Shown piece after piece: positions 25,338 through 61,221 of a DNA stretch of 64,000 nucleotides. How positions within the stretch are numbered: position 1 is the stretch's first letter; every line of letters begins with the position of its first letter. The position numbers were made by a program, and so were the translations under genes. Source of the stretch: Branchiostoma floridae (taxonomy: Eukaryota > Chordata > Leptocardii > Amphioxiformes > Branchiostomatidae); assembly GCF_000003815.2 (NCBI RefSeq), contig NC_049996.1, forward strand, positions 6,218,012 through 6,282,011, read 5' to 3'. A model generated the notes under the pieces. That model was not told where the DNA came from, made no database searches, and worked only from the letters and a program-made list of their open reading frames with translations.

Positions 25338-28300
25338 GTGAGTGTCTTAAACTAACCACCCTGTCCCTAAGGACCACAAAAAGGATAGGAGTGAACTAGA
25401 CAGGGGAATGGTGCAGGCAGGAAGCCTGAGTTGTTTAAGGCGCCGAAATGGGGTTTCCGGAAACGATGGGTTGGGCAAGCCGGCTGGGTAGTGGGCTGGG
25501 CTAGTATCCCCTATAATGGGGCCTCACAGACTTCTAGTTGGTGGGAGACCAAGTGATGAATGGCTTGTCCTCCAGCATATTTGAATTAGGCATGTCCAAT
25601 TATAGCCAAATATTCAAAGGAGCGACAGGAGGGTGACTACCCAGGTGGTGCTATTCACCTAGACATCATCAATCGCCTGGACTATCAGGATCACATATCA
25701 TCAGGTATAATATCTCAAGGGACCAACTAAGGAGTGCCACTATATTTATATCTTTCACGTATTACTAGATTTTTGCCACCACTTTATCAGAAATTACTTT
25801 TTAAAAAAAATACATGAAATTTATCCTTTATAAATTAGGAACTCAATCACCTGATATAGTCAGGTCAGGTTTTAAAAATCATTGTTGTGGAGAAATGCAT
25901 AGATGCCAGCACGTAAGAAGTACAAATAGCTGTAGCCTAAACCTTGTTGTAAATAACTACAAAGTCGGGGTATGTGTCGAAGTTAGTAAGCCCCACAGAT
26001 AACGATTGAAAAACTTGCACAAGTTTGACGCCTTCCATGCAAGTTGACGAGCGAACGTATCGAGACCATGGCCCGGGAAACTCTTGAATTATTCTTCGTA
26101 AAATAAGACATGTGAAAAAATACCACCACACATAGAAATGATGTTTATTAGACTTCCGAAAAATACTACCTGTGTTCTGTCTTGCCTTTAACTGGGTTGG
26201 ATAAACGGAGCTAAAATGATGCCACAATATTCACCCAGTCGGGGCCCCGCCATGTTACTATCACGCACGAAGGCGGGCGAGCGATGCTCAACACAATGAA
26301 CTTAGTCAACCCGTCCGTAGAGCGACAAACATTCAAGAAAAATCAATCCCTACCAACTAAAAATCCTGTAGCCATTGCTGCTGCCAGAAGACAGGATGAA
26401 AAGGCAATCAAGGAAGCCGAAAAGCGAAAAATAAACTATGCTATCACAGTCCGACGTAAACACTGCACCGCCGTTTTGCGGCAAGTTGGTCTCACCATGA
26501 GAGGTAAACGTTTTAACACACCGTATTTGAATAAGTCGCATTATACAAAATATGACCCATATTTGGTACAAATAAATAGTAATGAAAACTTTTAGTGCTA
26601 TACTATTTGCATAAGATGTTTAAAAATGTACAGCGATGGTCTTGTTGTTACTATGTCGGAGTTTGGACCCCTTTTTTGTGTTGGAACGTTCTGCTAGGAC
26701 GCAAGCCGAAAACCTGCCGTAAGTTTCGTGCGCTGTCAAAGTACAGTGCGGAACGCTACCGTTAAATGAAATATATATCTGTAAAGCTTTAATTACAGTT
26801 GTATACAAGATCTTAACTTGTTTTTGATGAGTTCACTGTAAAATGTACAATGACAAAAGCCATGCGCTTCCACCTAGAACGGCTGTCGAAGTATGGCCCC
26901 CTCCCGTTAGTATGCTGAATACTGGACTGGTGAAATGTTAGTTGTGCAATGATTCTTTATATTTTGATCTAATCAGAATTTTTCCTAGTAGAATTGGAGA
27001 TCGTCCTACTAGAATCGGAGTTCGTCCTAGGACAGATCCCGATTGCAATCTGTACTAGTAGAATCGCTGATTGTCCTAGGACAGATCCCGATTGCAGATG
27101 ATGCTGGTGATTGTCCTGAATCGCAATCCCTACTGTAACATATATATATATATATATAATGGAAGGCGTGGAAACCATTACCCCTGAGAATGAAGAACCT
27201 GGAGAAAGAACTTTAAGAAGTTTTGGAAACTCATAAAACAACAACGTATGAACCATTCTGCAATTGTTTCATTAAAAGAAAAGAAGCAGGAAATAGTTTT
27301 GTCTGTTCGTCGTTGGAAACCGAGTGGTACATTGCGGAAGTTTGACTTTTACCGACACTTTAACTTTAGAGACTAGAGACACTTTAGAGACTAGAGACTG
27401 GTATTGATTCTGAGAACTTAGAACAAGCAATATTATATGTTAGATAGGGCTCTATGGAATGACATGTACTAGCCTGGTCCTAACCTCCTGTCGGTGATGT
27501 ATATATGTACTACCAACACAGATGAGCTTCAATGATATATCTTCTCCTGTTTCTCTCCTCCTAGACTGGCCTGTTGTCAGGACACTGTCATGTCGGAGTT
27601 CCTGGTGGAGGCGGAGACAACACTTTTCTGGTATCGCTTCTCATGTATGGACAAAAATCAACTACTGCACTTATTTCACAAAATTAGGAAGTACGAAAAA
27701 AGACTACAGGATCAGCAAGGTGAAATTGGAAAGTCCAGGAGAGATCTGAAGACAGAAGAAAAATTGCGAGATCTTTTGAAAGTTGTGACAGGCCAGAGTG
27801 GAAACAGCTCCAGGTGGGAAAATATGATACAGTCCTATTTGCACTATTTTCACTCACAATGGAAACATCTCCCTGACATGAGTGCCAACCAGGATGAGGT
27901 AACTCAGTATGACCGGAGAACAGACCTTACCACTATGGACTGTAGCATGCACTGTCATACGGGTTGTCATGCTGCCAGTAGGAGTCATACAGCTTCAGGA
28001 GACTTCAAGGTAATAGCACAAAGAGACACTTGTTATGCAACATCAGAGGAAGAAAAGATTTTCCTGAAGGTTCCCTTCCAGTATACCCTGCAGCTGATTA
28101 CTGACAGAAGGGTGTGTCTACATAAGGGCTTTGCCTATGTACCTTCCATCTACCTTCCAAATGTTGTTGCCAATATTTTTGAAGAGTGCCTTAGACTTGG
28201 TATTGAACTTGCACGCAAGGCAGTCCCCGTTTGTCTGAGCGACCCTCGGATGCGGGAGATGTTTGGTACGCTCCAGCTGCAGTTCTATGAAGATGGGTGC

Positions 28301-30215
28301 CGGGGTGGGGAGGGCGTGGGTGTGGTGTTTGATACCATCAGTCGGCACGATGTTGACAGACTGGTGGACTTCTTCCCACCCTGCATGGCTCATCTGCACA
28401 GGACCCTGAGATACAAGCACCGTCTCAAGCACTTCTCAAGGGTAAGATGTCATACTGAGTAGGGTGCATCCCTGGAACTAGAAGAGTCGTGGTACTGTAA
28501 ATGCAGAAATTTTCGCGGTGGATTAATGTTCGCGGTTTCTGTGGTGACCACTTTACCGCGAACTTAAAACCACCGCGAACATTTTTCTATTATGGTATTA
28601 GACTGCAGTCTATGGTGTTACCGCGAAAAGTCCCTTTTCCCGCTACCACGAAATTAAATCCCCGCGAACTTAAATGCATTTACAGTACTATCATGTTACA
28701 TGTAGAAATTGTACATTACAGTAACATTTGGTAACAAAACATTTGTCAAGACCAGTTTAACTTTAAGAATATATATATAATAGCACTTCAGTTGGAAATG
28801 TTCTAGACATTTCATGGATTTCTGAGGTCTGGGAACTCTTGTTCTGTGTTTAGCTCCAGTACACACTGTTCCTGAAGGACCTGGGCCTGTCAGTACATGA
28901 TGCAGTCTCCTTCTGGCAGCAGGAATACAGCATACCTGCCCACGGGGGTGGCTGTACACATCACTGGGCAAAGGATGGGAGGAGGTACATGTAGGCTGCA
29001 TTGTTGGATCAATAGAAATTCATGTTACTCAACATTTTCTGCCCAATTCTCACATTTCCACTCATAGCCATCTAATGTTTTGTAAGTTAGCTTGCCTCAA
29101 GAAGAAGGTCATGTTCTCACTAAGCGTTTGTGTGTGTGTGTGTGTGCAAAATGGTAAAACTGCTTAATGATAAATGATGGGATTTTCTTTACTTGTGGCA
29201 TTTATTTTATTTCTTTTCAATTGTCAGGTATACATACAACATCAGGCACTTGTATGGTCTGGAGGGGTCCCGTGTTAGCTACAGGTCCCACTGTTGTCAG
29301 GGGATCTTGGTGAGTATGCTTGTTTGTGATTGTGTGTGAACTGTTGCAGGGTAAATCTGAATCAATTACAGTTTCATAAGGAGTCACGTATTAATATTCC
29401 TCATTGATTATGCAATTGAGCACATCAACTAATGTCCTCCTTTGCGTTAAGTTCTGGTTTGGAATTTGATATGACCACCTATCCAAATAGTTCGTAAGAA
29501 TAAGACACAAATCAGAGGCTGTGTCTATAGTTTTGGCTCCAGATTTTCCGGCTATTGCTATAGCAATGAATAATCTTATATATTTTCCCAAGTTGTTTGT
29601 AGTGTTTTTCAGTGTCAGAGATTTGGTTGTGCAGCAAACACTTCCGGATATTAGTGCGCGATAGCGGTAACACGGTTTCCACACCAGAAACTTATTTTTA
29701 TTCAAGAAGCCGATCATGAATATAATCCATCAGTTCTGAAGTTGTTCCACTTTTATTCTCAGGACAGAAGCCTTCAGCCGGGAGAGGAGGGAGGTTGTCC
29801 ATTCCAGCACTTTGACCAGACCCATCTGCAGCAGCTGTTGGATGCTGAAGGGGCGGATGCTGATGTACGCAGCAGGCTGGTATCTATGGTGATGGATCAG
29901 AAACCCCGGCAAGCTTGTCAAGCCTACCTTTTCCACAAGTTGCAGACGACATATTTCAAGACACTTGCAGGAGCGCTTACATACCATCAAGAACAAGGTA
30001 CAAAGGACGCTGGGGTTGAGGTGTGTCTGGAGTGTGGTGGCGCAGGTTCTAGTCAGCAGCAACAGTGTGATATACACGCAGATTGCACTGGCACACTTCA
30101 AACAGATTCAAGTGTCACCACTGGATGTACCACATGTTCTGTTAGGATCAGCAAACCCCTGGACTTCACTAGAGCACTTCTGAGGCTATTGCAGGGGCTG
30201 AAGGATCAAAGTTGA
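25123..30215 (+). CDS. PRIM2: DNA primase large subunit (PRIM2)
   Basis: Exons 25123-25337, 27565-28441, 28854-28984, 29228-29309 and 29763-30215 join in phase to 585 codons plus TGA. PRIM2 holds the RNA-DNA template and, through its C-terminal 4Fe-4S domain, helps the catalytic subunit start primers in the nuclear Pol alpha-primase complex. Seen: N-terminal FYISPPKGNMSLHRL, SHFTLRLACCQ, DRRVCLHKGFAYVP, FFPPCMAHLHRTLR, LQYTLFLKDLG, YTYNIRHLYG, and the four expected cluster cysteines in PPCM, SHCC, GGCPFQH and ACQAY. The protein is longer than the human one (509 residues, from memory), mainly by a linker in exon 2 and a Cys-rich C-terminus. The start may lie further upstream. A polyadenylation signal follows at 30425. 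Confidence 0.92.
26284..26595 (+). CDS. Hypothetical basic 103-residue ORF within PRIM2 intron 1
   Basis: Starts ATGCTCAACACAATG and stops at TAG. The protein is Lys/Arg-rich with an Ala/Glu/Lys helix-like centre (AAARRQDEKAIKEAEKRK) and a C-terminal YDPYLVQ. A GC-rich stretch with GCCATGTT lies just upstream and could be a promoter. Same strand as PRIM2. No family was recognised; it could be a small nested gene, a decayed transposon ORF or chance. Confidence 0.33.
   Translation: MLNTMNLVNPSVERQTFKKNQSLPTKNPVAIAAARRQDEKAIKEAEKRKINYAITVRRKHCTAVLRQVGLTMRGKRFNTPYLNKSHYTKYDPYLVQINSNENF
26985..27115. repeat. Short tandem repeat with CCTAGGACAGATCCCGATTG
   Basis: Several imperfect copies of (G)TCCTAGTAGAAT and of CCTAGGACAGATCCCGATTG in alternation. 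Confidence 0.65.
27565..28441 (+). CDS. PRIM2: PRIM2 exon 2
   Basis: Acceptor CTCCTAG, donor GTAAGA. Encodes RLACCQ through FFPPCMAHLHRTLRYKHRL, including the first cluster cysteine. Residues between the helical N-terminal part and GFAYVP are expanded and rich in Ser, His and Cys compared with vertebrate PRIM2. Confidence 0.92.
28493..28687. mobile_element. Miniature TIR element (TA target) in PRIM2 intron 2
   Basis: Ends TACTGTAAATGCAG and TGCATTTACAGTA are inverted, bounded by TA. The interior repeats CGCGG/CCGCG and TTCGCGG motifs, also partly inverted. Consistent with a Tc1/mariner-type miniature element. Confidence 0.7.
28854..28984 (+). CDS. PRIM2: PRIM2 exon 3
   Basis: The acceptor is taken at GTGTTTAG so that the exon begins LQYTLFLKDLGLSVHDA, matching QYGLFLKGIGL of vertebrates; an AG six bases later would drop LQ. 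Ends before GTACAT. Confidence 0.88.
29228..29309 (+). CDS. PRIM2: PRIM2 exon 4
   Basis: Encodes RYTYNIRHLYGLEGSRV and the second cluster cysteine in SHCCQGIL. Flanked by AATTGTCAG and GTGAGT. Confidence 0.92.
29763..30215 (+). CDS. PRIM2: PRIM2 exon 5 (C-terminus)
   Basis: Begins after TTTATTCTCAG. Encodes GGCPFQHFDQTHLQQLL (third cysteine) and ACQAYLFHKLQTTYF (fourth cysteine), then a tail with extra Cys (CLECGG, CTTC) and the TGA at 30213. Confidence 0.92.
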   Translation, partial: DRSLQPGEEGGCPFQHFDQTHLQQLLDAEGADADVRSRLVSMVMDQKPRQACQAYLFHKLQTTYFKTLAGALTYHQEQGTKDAGVEVCLECGGAGSSQQQQCDIHADCTGTLQTDSSVTTGCTTCSVRISKPLDFTRALLRLLQGLKDQS

Positions 30216-32929: not shown

Positions 32930-35900
32930 CTACAGTACAGTGGAGAAGAACTGTAATATTAGCAATGCCACATCATGTCCAACATATGATTTCACAGACT
33001 GATGCTTGCTTTGAATGTTTGGAACATCATTATAAATAGAGTAGTCAGATATACATAAAAGATAGTCATACCAAATGGTGATGATGATTATCTTATATGT
33101 ATATCTGACTTCTCATATTTAAGTTCACGGCTGTTCACGCAGCAGACATGCAACATGTTAGATTAAAAACAAGGCCAATGTGTCAAACGTTAGGCCATTC
33201 CTCATTGGCCTTCATAATAACCAGTTCAACCAATGATACCTTGGCAATTAGCAAAATCAACCAATTACAGGATTGCTGCATGTTTGTGAAATATTTGCAT
33301 CATCATGTTTATAGTTTTAAAATTTCTACAAGAGGCATTATTTATTTACTTTTCTGTCATCAATTTAACTGTATATGCATTGTACTTACTAGTCATAGTC
33401 TTGTATCATTATAATGGAAGCTCATCTGTGTTGGTTTACGTAGTAATCATCAATGCCTTCTCCTATGACTAAGGTATACACGGATCAAATTTTCAACCGC
33501 CACTGTCGCCTTCTTCATGACTACCGGTACTTTGTATGAGATATAAAGGAGGCCATATACATCAGGGCACTCCAGCTATTACTTAACTTAAGGTATGTCA
33601 CCTGGCTATATAGGCATTTTGACCTTCCATTGTTTTCTCGTTAATGAATTAAGAAAGAATGTAATGAATATTAATAGATAGATGGACATGAAAGAATTCT
33701 GAATCTCATTTTTTCGGGCCATATGGATGGCATCATCAGGTTTAATTGCCCCTAATATTTTCTATGAGAAAATACAGCACTTTGGTACATACCACTGCAA
33801 GCTACAAACTCACGTTCAAATTGATATCTTGTAATGACCTGTAGTTACAGTCAAACCTGTATTAGCGTCCACTTTTGCATAGCGACCACCTGGCCATTTA
33901 CTTTGGGATTGGTCAATATACATGTATGCTACTCTATAAAGCAGCCACATCTTTTCTGTTCAATAGTTATAATTGATCTTACACTTTGTACTTCTAAAAT
34001 CAGTGTGGTTTGGGAGAAAAACTGAACGGCAGCTGATTCTATGAATAACTTTGTTTGCCTCATTGACCTCGTTTTCGTCCGCTGTGTAGGCATATTGGTC
34101 ACATGTAGGTTTACTTTGCCATGTTCAGACCACAGACCAGACAATTATAAACTTGAATCAAACTTCAATAAAGACCATAAAACTCACCTTCCAGAATTTG
34201 TTTTTCCTTCATCACCAGAGCTCTAAGTTCCAATTCTTTCTTAAAGAGTAGTCTCTGTAATGGTACAACATTGGTATAAATTTTGATTGCATAAAACATT
34301 TTTGATTGTAAAAATGGTGACCAATTCAAGCCTTTGAGCTGACATCCCAATGACTGTTTATCTTGTTCCCTTGTGTAGAGAATTGTTTTTACCTGAATAT
34401 CTGGTGAACATAAGGCCACACCAACTTTATTTGTTTCTCGGATTTCCCGACCCTCTTTTGTCTGATTTGAAAAAGAAAACAAAAACTTTTCAAATTGATG
34501 GCCACACCTTGTGTTGACAAAATTTCACAGCATCTCCTGTCTCAAATTAAGTATGGGCCTCAAAATCCAGTAGCTGTACGTGCCTATTTTGGACGGTATG
34601 TTTATCATTTTTCTTCAAACTTTGGACTTTGCTACCAGGAACCCTCTAAATGTTGAAAGTTTGGGTTTTCCTGTCCGATCACTCCTACCCCCGACTTTTT
34701 GAAAAGTTTTTTAAAAAAATTTTTACGACCGACCGACCCAATTTTTTTTTCTGAAAAAAATCCGAGAAACAACAAAAATTGAAATAAAATTGGTCTAACC
34801 ACTACCATTTCACCCTGCACAATCAACATTACAGCCCCTCACTTACAACAAACGGTTTTGTTCTTACCTTTATTTGCAATAACTTGACTTCCAGCTCAAC
34901 TTTCTTGATGCAGTTTTCAAACAGCACAATTAGGCTATATTAAAAAAGAGACAGAGTTAGCTTACAAGGAAAAATAGTTCCAGCAGTATCAGTTATCATA
35001 TTTCAGAGGTGAAATATTACGTCATCCATGAGCCCGCTGGATAGAGCCACATGGAAGCACAGTGTAAAGACTAGCCGACTGCTGCCTACCTGTGTCAGGG
35101 ACCCCAGCAGCAGTATTATCAAATACTGACAGGATACTACTACTACATGCAACAAAAGGGACATATCTGTGTAAACATTTACAATGTGGCATTTTAGCAA
35201 TAGGATTTCATCAAGTAGGCCAACTCAGCCATTAGTAATATTCAAGTGAAATATTTCAATACGTGCTTAATCTTCCCAGTCGACTTTCGCATGTAGGGAA
35301 CATTGCTGGTTTTTCCCTCTATGCACATATGAAATGCAAGACTACACCATTAACAACATTAGAAGAAAATGCTTTTTTCAGTAAATCAACTAACGATAGT
35401 TTGTTGCCCGCCTGTCTGATGAGCTTTACTACGACCTGGTGGTCCGCATGCGCCACGACGGAACCATTGACGGACAGGATGACGTCACCTGTGTCAGGAG
35501 ATCGGTTCAAGTTAGCAACATAACAGCTAAACTGTGGCCTTTGTGTTTTTGTTATATTTCACTCCATACCGTAGGTAGAACTCTTTAAGTTCGTCTACAC
35601 ATGTTTTAAGAAGAGAGAAGAGGCATGTAAACTATAGTATGTGTTTACTACCTTTTGTATCAAACTGACTGTATTTAGCCCCAATTGGGCTTGAATATGT
35701 GTAACAGTGGTGTTCAAGGACTGCTAAACCGAAGACGCCTAACGGCTTAAGCCTTTATGGCCGAACGGTTTGCACGTTCGATTTGTGATCCGGCTGCCCG
35801 GGTTTGGCGCGGGTTCGAATCCCGGGAGTCGGGGTGTTGCTTCTTTCTGTTCTTACTCGCCCCTCTGGTTGTTACAATGGTTCCCACGCCGGCCCTGTGA

Positions 35901-38900
35901 GTAACAGGCTAGTATGTGCCACACAGGGATGTCGATCTCGGAGATTCGAGGACGAATCTTGAAAAGAAAAGGGGGAGTAGTGTAACAGTGGTGTTCAAGG
36001 ACTGCTAAACCGAAGACGCCTAACGGCTTAAGCCTTTATGGCCGAACGGTTTGCACGTTCGATTTGTGATCCGGCTGCCCGGGTTTGGCGCGGGTTCGAA
36101 TCCCGGGAGTCGGGGTGTTGCTTCTTTCTGTTCTTACTCGCCCCTCTGGTTGTTACAATATGCAATAAACTTCATTGCCATTATATCAATGAAAAGTATG
36201 GACGGTGTGTTATTGCTGTGTTTACCCGGGGTGAGCCCACAGTAGAAGGCGGGAGAGTCGTCATACACACGGCTGACGTACGTACACAACTCCAGCTCCG
36301 GGCTACCTCTGTGATGGATTCCGTATGTCTAACACAAACAAACAAACAAACAAACTTTCACACAATGAACAATGATTCTCTATATACATGCATGTCTTTC
36401 ACGTCATATAGAACTATAGAACACAATGAATAAAGAGACACTTTTACAAAACCATTGGTTTGAAAAAGTGTCTCTTTATTCATAGTGAAAAAGTGTCTCT
36501 TTATTCATAGACCGCGGCCAGGGTTGGATAAGTTTTTTTTTCAATTCACTTGTCCTATCGGGCAAGTACATAAAAAATTTACTTGCCCGAACCAGCTTTT
36601 CACTTGCCCGAATTTTACCATTTTCTATGTACTAAATCCATCTATGCACTAAATCCATTTTTGTTATTGGCTTGTAGGGAATCCGACGGATTTTGGAGCA
36701 CGCAGATACGCCGTAGAACTTTACGTGCAGGCAAAACTTTGGGTGCACCTTGCGCAACCGTGCGAATGACGTGTGTTGACGTACTCCCTCCCTGCTCTTG
36801 CCAGTCGTTCCCCACGTTTTCAGAAATACGTGGCGGGCGTGGCGGACAAATCGCACGTACGGCGGGTTGTGCCCTTAGCTTTCATGAGTGCCAAATGTCT
36901 CCTTACCTGTGTCCAAATCAGTATTGAGGCAGTACTGAATATTTCCTTACCTGCAGTTCAAATCCAAACGGCTCGCCTCGTATTCGATTCAACACGAGTT
37001 TTCTTCTAAAAGGCAAAACAAATAGTATGCATATCAACACATTGTACGTGGATAACCATACATCTGTGAGCTCTTACGGTGCGTTTCTTACGAGAGCTCG
37101 CGATTTGGAATCTCCAAAAGTGACTAGAAAATTATGTGACGTACCGATGCTGTTCATATGAGAAGTACTAGTATACAATTAGTTTGAAAGAAGTTTCTGA
37201 GAAACAAACTATACCCGCATCCCTCTGGAACAGAGACTATGCAAATACAGTCTGTATTGTAATTAAGATAGAATAGAGGACGAACGTCAAGTTGTAGTAG
37301 TGTGTAGATTGTATACTGTAGAGAGAAATGAAGTGAAAACCAATTTCCTTATTTCATACACCTAACTTCTGTAGAAAAAAATCATATTCCTAATGCAACT
37401 AGACAAACCATCGATCAAATCTGCTCTTTTATCTCCACTATAACAGAAAAGCGAGGAGAAGTTGAATTTATCCAGCAATAGTCTCATTTTGTATCTGTGA
37501 ACTGTATCTTTTCAACATGTCTTGTTGTGACCTGTACTTAGCCCGGTGTGGCAAAAATGTGCAATAAAGGTCTTCATTCATTCATTTACTATTCCTCTGC
37601 TGTGCGACTGTAACGTTACGTGTACGGCATCACCTTCTCCTGTTCTCCTCCGGACTGGTCAGCTCATCACCGCGATTCTGCAGGGAAACAGCATCAGACT
37701 TGTGGACAGCTCAAGAGCAGGTTGGTACGCTATTCACAATCAAAGTTCTTTTAGCGCAATTAATGTCCTCACCAACGTCTGGGACCGCACGTATGGCCAC
37801 AGCAAGTACATTTTTAATGGGTGACATCCTCTGCAGACTGCAAGATTAATCAGATAGGGCCCAAAAAACAAGGTGGGTAAAAAACAAGATGGCTAGGTTT
37901 TTAAAATAGACACCATTACATAAACAAGCTACAAAACATGGTATCACAGCCAACAAGGCATTCATTCCTGTATTCAAGATGTGCACTTTTTTGTGCACTT
38001 GTGTGGTATACTTAATACTGGTTACTGGCAAGTTGGCTGACTGGTGTCACCTTTACAACCATCTAGCTAAATTTTAGTTTCACTTCCACACTCATGGACC
38101 TCGTTAGTGTCACTTTTACAGAGTCCGTTCTACAAGCACAACCATTAACTACAACACAACATATTTTCTCATTTTGGTTATTTCCCGTCATGTTGACCAT
38201 CTCCAAAGACGAATTTTTTGTGTGAAATGAGATGAAAATTTAAAATGAGTGCGCTGATGAGATGAGATAATCCATCACGTTTGCTTGCCGTGGCCTAAGG
38301 AGTGGCAGAGGCAGCTGGGCACAGCCGTACGTCTGTGAGGGCTAAAATTCAGCTCTGATTGTGTCAAAAGTCATAAGTGAATAAGTGAAAAAGTGAATAA
38401 GTCATAATGTTTCACCACCGGAAGTGAGCACACCTGCTTAGTAAGGCAAGAACGTTACTATTTAAAGCAGGTGTTTTTGTGGTACTTTTGTGGGGTTTTA
38501 CAACGACTATGGGCTGTTGGTCTCCAAGACAGGGACCTCTTGTCTGTCATGCGCGACAGAGTCATCTGGAGGGACTTCATGATGTTACATGTTGCATGAA
38601 CTGAACTGATAGCCAGTTTTAGTACTATACTGTGAAATTAGCAAAACTGTGGTGTCGCAATGAGCCAAAATTTGGACGATTTTCAAATAGAGGTCAAATA
38701 GAGGTCATTTTGCTTGGAGAATATACATGCCTCTCCACTCACCAGTTACGCTTCAATTAAACAAATTTACTACAGAATACAAGTAAACATCACATGCGTT
38801 AAGCTTTAAAGCAGAAACACGGGCTCCCGCCATTTTTGCGTGACTCTGTTGTCGTGTTCATGTGCACTGAGGTAAATATCGTGAATATTTAATAGCATCA

Positions 38901-58934: not shown

Positions 58935-60004
58935 TTAATTACCTCCATGAAATGTCATGGAGGTTATATTTTACCCCGCGTTTGTCTGTGTGTCTGTCTG
59001 TGTGTAAACAAGATAACTCAAGAACGGCTGGGTGGATTGGTTTGATACTTGGTGTGTTGGTAGGGTGTGATGAAAGCTGGAAATGATTAGATTTTGGTCC
59101 CCCTAGCGGCTCCCCTTGGTACTGCAGCGCAACTTCCGGTTTTGCTATCTTGGTGTTCTGAACATGCTATGGTCACGATTTTTGAGTATTAGAAAGCTCT
59201 TGTGCTCAGGAAGAAGTGACATAAGTTTTGGCCCCCTAGCGTCTAGTTTTGGGATAGCAGGGGCATTTTTGTCAAAAACTTCTGACGAGGATAACTCAAG
59301 AAGGGAACAACGGATTTTCATGATTTTTGGTATGAAGGTACCTTGGACAATGTTGTACAAGATGAAGTACTAATTATGCAAAATTATATTACATTTGCAT
59401 AATTAATGAGAATATTCTATCATAGCAGTTTTTTCTATTTATCTCTTGTCTTGGACGTGATATGGTCTTGAAATTTAGGTGGTAGATAGCTTTCAGTGTC
59501 ATGACATAGTGGAGCAAGTTTCAGCCCCCTAACATTTAATTTAGGAACTGCAGGGGCGTTTTTGTCAAGACATTCCAAAGAGGATAACTGCAGAAAGGAA
59601 CGACGGATTGGCATCATATTAGGCATGCGGGTACCTTAGGCAAAGATGTTCATAATGATATACATGTTATGCAAATGAGGACTTAATTTGCATAATTAAT
59701 GAGGAAATTGTATAATTCCATTGTTTTCAATAACTGGACTTCAATAAATGTAACACATGTTAACTATGATAGGTGGAATATAAGCAGATACCAAATATGG
59801 TAATGAGGAACTTATTTGCATAATTTATGTAAAAATTGCAAAAACGCTTTATGCTTAATAATGGGAATTTTATAATGGTGACATGTGTACGTTAGTCAAT
59901 GATGAACAATACCATGCATAAATTATGTTAATGTGCTAGTCAATTGCATGAAATTTACGAAAGCTCTAAATTTTCATGGAGGTATGAGGTCGCCGAACTC
60001 TAGT
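58935..60004. repeat. Dispersed repeat, tandem unit 1
   Basis: Starts near ACCTCCATGAAATG and GTTTGTCTGTGTGT, then AACAAGATAACTCAAGAACG, GGTACTGCAGCGCAACTTCC, several TTTGCATAATTAATGAG phrases, and ends TTTTCATGGAGGTATGAGGT. No protein coding. Confidence 0.85.
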
Positions 60005-61053
60005 TTACCCTGTGTTTGTCTGTGTGTGTGTGTCTGTCTGTGTGTCTGTGTGTAAACAAGATAACTCAAGAACAGTTGGGTGGATTGGTTTCATACTTGG
60101 TGTGTTGGTAGGGTGTGATGAAAGCTGAAAATGATTAGATTTTCGGCCCCATAGCGGCTTCCCTTGGTACTGCAGCGCAACTTCCGGTTTCGCTATTTCG
60201 GTGTTCTGAACATGCTATGGTCACGATTTTTTAGTGTTAGGTAACTCTTGTGCTCAGAAAGAAGTGACATAAGTTTGGGCCCCCTAGCATCTAGTTTAGG
60301 GATAGCAGGGGCATTTTTGTCAAAAACTTCTGAAGAGGATAACTCAAGAAGGGAACAACGGATTTTCATGATTTTTGGTATGTAGGTACCTCGGACAATG
60401 TTGTACAAGACAAAATACTAATTATGCAAAATAGGAGCACAGTTGCATAATTAATGAGAATGTTCTATCATAGCAGTTTTTTCAATGTATCTCTTGTTCC
60501 AGACATGCTATTGTCTTGACATTTAGGTGGTAGATAGCTTTTAGTGCCATAAACAAGTGGGGCAAGTTTCAGCTCCCTAACATTTAATTGTGGAACTTCA
60601 GGGGTGTTTTTGTCAAGACACTCCAAAGAGGATAACTGCAGAAAGGAACGACGGATTGCCTGCATTTTAGGCATGCAGGTAGCTTAGGCAAAGATGTTCA
60701 TAATGATATACATGTTATGCAAATGAGGACTTAATTTGCATAATTAATGAGGAAATTGTATATTTCCCTTGTTTTCAATAACTGGACCTCAATACATGTA
60801 ACACATGTTAATTATGATAGGTGGAATATAAGCAGATACCAAATATGGTAACGAGGAACTTATGTGCATAATTTATGTAAAAATTGCAAAACCACTTTAT
60901 GATTAATAATGGGAATTTTATAATTGTGACATGTGTACGTTAGTCAATGATGAACAACACCATGCATAAATTATGTTAATTTGTTAGTCAATTGCATGAA
61001 ATTTACGAAAGCTCTAAATTTTCATGGAGGTATGAGGTCGCCGAACTCTAGTT
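60005..61053. repeat. Dispersed repeat, tandem unit 2
   Basis: Near-identical direct repeat of the preceding 1.05 kb, ending ATGAGGTCGCCGAACTCTAG, about 170 bp before the first LARP4-type exon. Confidence 0.88.
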
Positions 61054-61221
61054 TTCTAATGTGATCTGTCTGCTCTCTACAGGATTTCTAGTCATGATAA
61101 TCATCATCATCATCTGACTCACTAGAGATGATAATGGTTTTTTTTTTTATGTATCTGTATGTTCTGCCATCCATGTAAATTTCCTTTTGACAATATCTGT
61201 GTCTGTGTCTGTATGTAACAG

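What the first reader, a model, noticed from the sequence alone, without database searches (positions are those of the whole stretch)
35700..36157. Miniature LTR retrotransposon whose LTRs carry a tRNA-like Pol III promoter
The element has identical 177-bp LTRs (TG...CA), a 104-bp coding-free interior with candidate primer-binding site and purine tract, and a clean 5-bp target duplication (ATATG). Each LTR contains A-box and B-box sequences with tRNA-like spacing. Plant Cassandra elements are known to carry 5S rRNA sequence in their LTRs; a tRNA-type equivalent in an animal would be a parallel invention, and I do not recall one described. The two identical LTRs and intact target site suggest recent insertion.
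Basis: partly seen in the sequence, partly recalled or inferred. Interest (0 to 1): 0.8.

Follow-up and report, generated by a model that had tools for sequence, protein, structure and literature searches.

The report
tRNA-promoter mini-retrotransposon in amphioxus
This is a tiny non-coding jumping element of a recently described type (Helenus) whose repeated ends carry a tRNA-like start signal; it is present in hundreds of copies in what is almost certainly the Florida amphioxus, and some copies contain the tRNA that primed their own copying.

Summary
At 35700-36157 lies LTR(177)-interior(104)-LTR(177), with identical LTRs, tRNA-type A and B boxes, a PBS, a PPT and no coding. It is a multicopy family: 39 other near-full-length loci at 97-99% and 240 exact PPT-LTR junctions genome-wide. 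The family makes 4-bp target duplications (34 of 39 loci; shuffled mean 1.2). The window copy's 5-bp ATATG is therefore more likely TATG plus one untrimmed A.

TRIMs with a tRNA-like sequence in the LTR were described in 2024 as Helenus (PMC10886601), in animals too, with 4-bp duplications. The host matches Branchiostoma floridae by assembly size and N50; it is not in that paper's host table.

What appears new is primer capture. The PBS is complementary over 15 of 15 bases to a host tRNA-Glu. Of 61 tRNA-Glu 3' ends found in the genome, 37 carry a CCA and sit at the PBS position behind an LTR-like end. All 37 were read: 31-75 nt of tRNA were copied; 7 are full-length and perfect. At 7 of 22 testable loci a 4-bp duplication encloses the structure (shuffled mean 0.56). 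Pol III transcription remains inferred.

The parts
35696..35699 (.). left target-site duplication TATG (5-bp reading ATATG = 35695-35699)
   Evidence: family rule 4 bp in 34 of 39 loci
35700..35876 (+). 5' LTR, 177 bp, class A
   Evidence: identical to 35981-36157
35758..35768 (+). A box TGGCCGAACGG in 5' LTR
   Evidence: box consensus as quoted in PMC10886601
35812..35822 (+). B box GGTTCGAATCC in 5' LTR
35877..35980 (+). non-coding interior, 104 bp; 100% identical over all 104 bases at 39 of the 40 places scored, the window's own included (492 candidates)
35878..35892 (+). primer-binding site TGGTTCCCACGCCGG, complementary to tRNA-Glu 3' end
   Evidence: 15 of 15 to the CGTGGGAA form, 14 of 15 to the TGTGGGAA form; genomic tRNA-Glu gene L176
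35945..35957 (+). TTCGAGGACGAAT motif; a similar motif stands at the probable 3' end of a host Gypsy family
   Evidence: compare L158/L160
35962..35977 (+). polypurine tract AAAAGAAAAGGGGGAG
   Evidence: AAAAGGGGGAGTAG|TGTAACAGTGG junction found 240 times, reversed control 0
35981..36157 (+). 3' LTR, 177 bp
36039..36049 (+). A box in 3' LTR
36093..36103 (+). B box in 3' LTR
36159..36162 (.). right target-site duplication TATG (36158 = probable untrimmed spacer A)

Best explanation
It is a Helenus-type TRIM (non-autonomous LTR retrotransposon under 1 kb). Inferred: Pol III, recruited by the A and B boxes of the 5' LTR, makes a short RNA that runs into the 3' LTR, so that both RNA ends share LTR sequence. 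Strongly supported: a host tRNA-Glu anneals to the PBS and primes minus-strand DNA; the PPT primes the plus strand; an integrase inserts the cDNA with a 4-bp stagger. Inferred: the enzymes come in trans from a Ty3/Gypsy element with the same primer; at least one such family is in the genome. Shown in the sequence: at 37 places, most of them behind LTRs of this kind, the plus strand ran past nucleotide 58 of the primer and copied up to the whole tRNA, and such molecules integrated.
For: Multicopy family with 4-bp duplications (26 of 34 further loci, 10 of them one event). Two solo LTRs with duplications. No substitution between the LTRs in 26 of 57 same-class pairs (best-scoring copies, so biased to young ones). 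PBS matches a real tRNA-Glu gene 15 of 15. Primer tRNA physically present behind LTR-like ends in 37 places, reversed control 0. A 4-bp duplication encloses LTR plus tRNA at an LTR end at 7 of 22 loci, shuffled mean 0.56, maximum 4 in 5,000. A Gypsy-type family has a tRNA-Glu PBS (14 of 15), a probable LTR start TGTAAC behind a GGGGGAG-like tract, and a TTTGAGGACAAAT motif; an integrase core (PF00665, E 2e-10) lies behind one related LTR. The B box recurs in four LTR types that differ elsewhere.
Against: No transcript data: Pol III use and RNA ends are untested. No tRNA is recognised in the LTR. The A box of LTR classes B and C fits the published form only loosely, and the B box of type D is one base off. 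No TTTT inside the element, so where Pol III would stop is unknown. The interior is only about 79% like the Gypsy family's start over 28 bp that include the PBS (E 0.011), so that family is a candidate or relative, not a proven helper. Five of 39 loci lack the duplication.
Confidence: 0.78

Rival explanations
1. The element is an LTR-type TRIM, but transcribed by Pol II; the A and B boxes are relics of a SINE that once inserted into the LTR.
For: No tRNA recognised; no TTTT terminator in the element; the A box is loose in LTR classes B and C; canonical TRIMs are grouped as Pol II elements (PMC10886601).
Against: The B box persists in four LTR types, one base off in D. Minority-base rate in class A is 0.3-0.4% in the boxes against 0.5-1.5% in the other parts of the LTR, and in class B 0% against 1.3-2.6%; the counts are small.
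Confidence: 0.18
2. The tRNA-Glu copies behind LTRs are real tRNA genes beside which the elements like to insert (as yeast Ty3 or Dictyostelium elements do), not captured primers.
For: Tight LTR-tRNA proximity in 37 of 61 cases.
Against: The copies carry CCA, which the true gene L176 lacks. They start at the PBS position, one base behind CA in 36 of 37; 30 of 37 stop short of, or differ before, the tRNA 5' end. They lie inside the target duplications at 7 of 22 testable loci. A generic pattern for any tRNA found 84 matches (reversed control 19), 55 of them Glu-like.
Confidence: 0.03
3. A local tandem duplication or a pair of tRNA-SINEs that mimics LTRs.
For: The window alone shows only one such pair.
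Against: Thirty-nine further loci of the same architecture, 34 with 4-bp duplications.
Confidence: 0.01

Closest known systems
Helenus (Kojima 2024, PMC10886601)
   Same: TRIM under 1 kb; tRNA-type A and B boxes in the LTR; PBS and PPT; 4-bp duplications in animals; PBS regions like those of Gypsy; bivalve families include tRNA-Glu primers; tandem arrays known in the zebrafish family
   Different: Host is a cephalochordate, not in that paper's Table 1; the LTR promoter half exists in at least three versions on one interior; copied primer tRNA is found in the element, which the parts of the paper that I read do not mention
Cassandra (plants) and Ajax (nemerteans)
   Same: TRIM with a Pol III-type promoter in the LTR
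   Different: They carry 5S rRNA sequence; no 5S match here. Ajax makes 5-bp duplications
Bivalve biv-TRIM (PMC6934838, passages seen)
   Same: Animal TRIM
   Different: No canonical PBS could be unambiguously identified there
Retroviral plus-strand strong-stop DNA that reads past m1A58 (product P1 in PMC13191261, passages seen)
   Same: RT copies the tRNA primer beyond the usual 18 nt, up to its 5' end
   Different: Full copying is reported there for unmodified tRNA, extension past A58 for TRMT6-mutant cells, and P1 is not counted among the usable products; here such products are integrated in a genome

Membership tests
Helenus | TRIM: two LTRs, under 1000 bp, no coding | tested here: met
   458 bp. 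A chance frame of the ORF list (36032-36433) runs out of the 3' LTR into the flank
Helenus | tRNA-type box A (TRGCY...YGG) and box B (GGTTC) in the LTR | tested here: met
   TGGCCGAACGG and GGTTCGAATCC, starts 54 bp apart; 0 of 20,000 Markov controls. Related LTR classes B and C have a looser A box
Helenus | wider tRNA similarity of the LTR | tested here: inconclusive
   No ARAGORN or gathering-level Rfam hit; permissive scan lists only a 13-bit tmRNA match of the same clan. The paper used Censor and tRNAscan-SE, not available here
Helenus | PBS and PPT at the interior ends | tested here: met
   PBS 15 of 15 to tRNA-Glu; PPT junction 240 times
Helenus | 4-bp target duplications in animals | tested here: met
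   34 of 39 loci; window copy itself ambiguous 4 or 5 bp
Helenus | moved by Gypsy enzymes | tested here: inconclusive
   Gypsy-type family with the same primer and similar ends found; mobilisation not shown
Helenus | transcribed by Pol III | not testable with these tools
   no RNA data; unvalidated in the paper as well
Cassandra / Ajax | 5S rRNA sequence in the LTR | tested here: not met
   no 5S match
tRNA-SINE | single unit without LTRs, PBS or PPT | tested here: not met

The most novel reading that the evidence does not exclude
In amphioxus the reverse transcriptase that moves this TRIM (and at least one Gypsy family) repeatedly copies its tRNA-Glu primer far past nucleotide 58, up to the complete tRNA, and the products integrate. 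The retroelements thereby capture their own primer and scatter CCA-bearing tRNA-Glu copies: 37 of the 61 tRNA-Glu 3' ends found in the genome are such captures (a lower bound), 7 of them complete and perfect. LTR reverse transcription would then be a source of new tRNA gene copies. The usual m1A58 stop must be weak or missing here; the copies show no clear excess of substitutions at that position (3 of 55).
Probability: 0.75. Interest if true: 0.75.

Novelty: new member of a known kind. Interest (0 to 1): 0.55.

Why it matters
It extends tRNA-promoter TRIMs to a chordate lineage outside the fishes listed in the Helenus paper, and to a species used as a model of chordate evolution. The captured primers are a fossil record of reverse transcription: they name the primer without an assay, show that read-through past A58 can give integrated DNA, and warn that over half of the tRNA-Glu-like 3' ends counted here (37 of 61) are retroelement debris. 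They also make it testable whether LTR elements create new tRNA genes.

Tried and rejected
A transcription start at LTR nucleotide 35, read from the tRNA-LTR junction in L049, was dropped: junctions at other loci (L161, L141, L142) lie elsewhere.

A possible duplication at L164 (CTTG) was dropped as likely chance, because it does not follow an LTR end; L139 (GATA right at the end of the tRNA copy, by eye) is not in the count of 7.

Misincorporation at A58 as a sign of the methyl group: 3 of 55; the other freely varying positions of the pattern differ in 0 to 7 of 55.

Exact-match scans for a 28-base LTR core in viral and prokaryotic contigs: none.

A search for other LTRs behind the same PPT gave 33 matches against 19 for the reversed control, so many may be chance; 4 of the 33 were fetched. 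They gave a second tRNA-type family in tandem (L132), an element with a different LTR (L130/L131) and a class B copy with a broken second LTR (L133). No autonomous element with the identical interior was found, but the scored lists are capped at 40.

Dropped before counts: the 76% relic in L010; L010 and L016 (L059 and L058 used instead). In one search, 2 of 36 loci without both LTRs. In one search the five mixed-class pairs were kept apart from the 57. In one search, 15 of the 37 capture loci in which no LTR start was recognised; of the 22 kept, some right ends lie outside the stretch fetched.

Novelty searches for captured primers: 10 of 10 papers listed; 12 of 13; 15 of 150; 11 of 11. No listed title or start of abstract reports it; of these papers, only passages on this question were read, in two of them, besides the Helenus paper and biv-TRIM passages already named.
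Full report
OBSERVATION. The window holds LTR 35700-35876, interior 35877-35980 and LTR 35981-36157; the LTRs are identical. The window contains no other copy. A and B boxes start 54 bp apart in each LTR, and 0 of 20,000 Markov sequences of the LTR reproduce them. ARAGORN and gathering-level Rfam see no tRNA; a permissive Rfam scan lists only a 13-bit tmRNA match over the B-box arm besides a plastid motif on the other strand, and that tool hides weaker matches of the same clan.

HOST. The genome that holds the window has 513,431,437 bases in 431 contigs, and its contig C9 is 25,441,410 bases long. A published table gives Branchiostoma floridae 513.46 Mb, N50 25.44 Mb, L50 9 (PMC9673378, passage). 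I take the host to be B. floridae (Cephalochordata); no marker gene was tested.

FAMILY. The element as query gave 46 matches (1024 candidates, 40 scored): the window, 44 at 97-99%, and one relic at 76%. The 44 lie in 39 loci, all fetched. As aligned, 31 of 39 have a 4-bp duplication; with the LTR end anchored, 34 of 39, where shuffled partners give a mean of 1.2 and a maximum of 6 in 2,000. Five of 39 are LTR-INT-LTR-INT-LTR tandems. The LTR alone had 980 candidates, 40 scored; 10 loci not in the first list were fetched, and two are solo LTRs with 4-bp duplications. The exact PPT-LTR junction occurs 240 times, reversed control 0. In the window copy, ATATG can be read as TATG plus an A; the base before the PBS is that same A.

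LTR MODULES. The interior alone had 492 candidates; the 40 scored are 100% identical, 39 over all 104 bases and one over 103. Four, the window included, were already held; 36 were newly fetched. LTR classes A and B agree in 41 of 62 aligned columns over nucleotides 16-75 and in 87 of 91 over 76-165 (alignment). Four main LTR 3' ends occur; two of them are found on both A and B first halves (166 LTRs, 5 unclassed), although part of those counts comes from one amplified copy. All four combinations of two classes and two ends occur, so the LTR is a mosaic. A third class (C, in L147 and L142) and a second family (D, L132) have other promoter halves, with a B box (one base off in D) and a looser or similar A box. 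Recombination in the shared middle part of the LTR, as expected when two RNAs are copied together, would explain this; gene conversion would as well. Of the 36, 34 show both LTRs and 26 have a 4-bp duplication when the LTR end is searched within a short range, which favours matches somewhat; 10 of the 26 share TTCC and are one event.

PRIMER. The PBS TGGTTCCCACGCCGG is complementary to the CGTGGGAA form of tRNA-Glu over 15 of 15 bases and to the TGTGGGAA form over 14 of 15. The genome has 61 places with this T-arm and acceptor end, 6 of them CGTGGGAA, reversed control 0. One of the six, L176, is a tRNA-Glu(CTC) gene by ARAGORN without encoded CCA; another, L177, is no complete tRNA.

PRIMER CAPTURE. 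Thirty-seven of those 61 carry CCA and follow CA plus zero to two bases (one base in 36), the form of an LTR end and PBS; reversed control 0 (compared by eye). The number is a lower bound: at C13 a further one lies 17 bases from a Gypsy-type LTR motif. All 37 were read. The preceding sequence resembles this element's LTR types A-D in 29 (73-100% identity, several only in part), a Gypsy-type LTR in 3 and another LTR in 1; 4 had no match (L147, L138 and L144 match themselves, as they supplied three of the query LTRs). The copied tRNA is 31 to 75 nt long; the search itself demanded 25, so shorter copying was not sampled. Seven are complete and perfect: L049, L140, L143, L151, L153, L161, L162. 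Retroviral RT normally stops after 18 nt, at m1A58 (PMC13191261, passages). An LTR start was recognised at 22 loci; at 7 of them the 4 bases before it recur directly behind an LTR end downstream of the tRNA (L049 ATAC, L141 TCTC, L149 GTTG, L153 CATT, L168 CGAC, L174 TACA, L175 GTTG), shuffled mean 0.56, maximum 4 in 5,000. At L139, GATA recurs right at the end of the tRNA copy (by eye). After the tRNA the sequence goes on into another LTR, an LTR end, the interior or host DNA, so the joins vary. A generic pattern for any tRNA gave 84 matches (reversed control 19): 55 Glu-like and two that look like tRNA-Lys by recall.

HELPER. L138 is a non-Helenus LTR, 72 nt of tRNA-Glu and an integrase core (PF00665, E 2e-10). 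A 32-base motif of that LTR occurs 46 times at up to 2 mismatches, reversed control 0, with three pairs 7.8-7.9 kb apart. The ends of two such copies show a tRNA-Glu PBS, GAGGGGGAGGTAG or GAGAGGGAGGTAG before a probable LTR start TGTAAC, and a TTTGAGGACAAAT motif. This is the kind of element that could supply the enzymes; the shared interior is too short and diverged to prove it.

LITERATURE. Helenus covers this architecture (PMC10886601: parts 1-5 of 6 and the figures-and-tables section read; supplements not available). Its Table 1 lists no cephalochordate. Searches (7 of 7 papers listed; 25 of 66; 18 of 18; 12 of 21; 10 of 275) showed no title or start of abstract that reports this type from amphioxus; unlisted papers were not seen. 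A 2026 meeting report mentions Helenus only in passing (PMC12859917, passages).

VERDICT. The element is real and is a new host record of a known kind. The captured primer tRNAs are the unexpected result.

Noticed in passing
L128:3787-7504 and L129:3839-7559: A DNA transposon of about 3.7 kb (inverted ends CGCCCATTCCTC, 4-bp duplications AACA and TGTA read by eye) carries one copy of this TRIM (5' LTR class B, 3' LTR class A, duplication TTCC). Of 14 interior loci tested against it (of 36), 13 match its flanks, so the TRIM also spreads as a passenger.
   Followed up: partly
G000:C7:7650099-7650126 and C245:43739-43766: Two LTR-end-plus-PBS-like places carry a longer complement that looks like tRNA-Lys, so primer capture may not be limited to tRNA-Glu (isotype recalled).
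   Followed up: no
L132: A second tRNA-promoter TRIM family in tandem (interior copies 86.7-87.6% like the window's), with A-to-B box spacing 66.
   Followed up: partly
L130, L131: An element with the same purine tract and a TGTAACAGGAC start but a different LTR; two copies 98.8% alike over 907 bp, 86% like the last 44 bp of the interior.
   Followed up: partly
L144: Another LTR family, as LTR - 71 nt of tRNA-Glu - partial LTR, on a different LTR sequence.
   Followed up: no
window 27536-28462 and 29655-30215 (+): Open frames that match the DNA primase large subunit (PF04104; the second one is below the curated cut-off).
   Followed up: no
window 36422-36510: 29-bp inverted repeat (93% complementary) with a 25-bp tandem copy just downstream of the element, a possible small hairpin element.
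   Followed up: no
window 58980-61054: Two direct copies of 1,027 bp at 92% identity.
   Followed up: no
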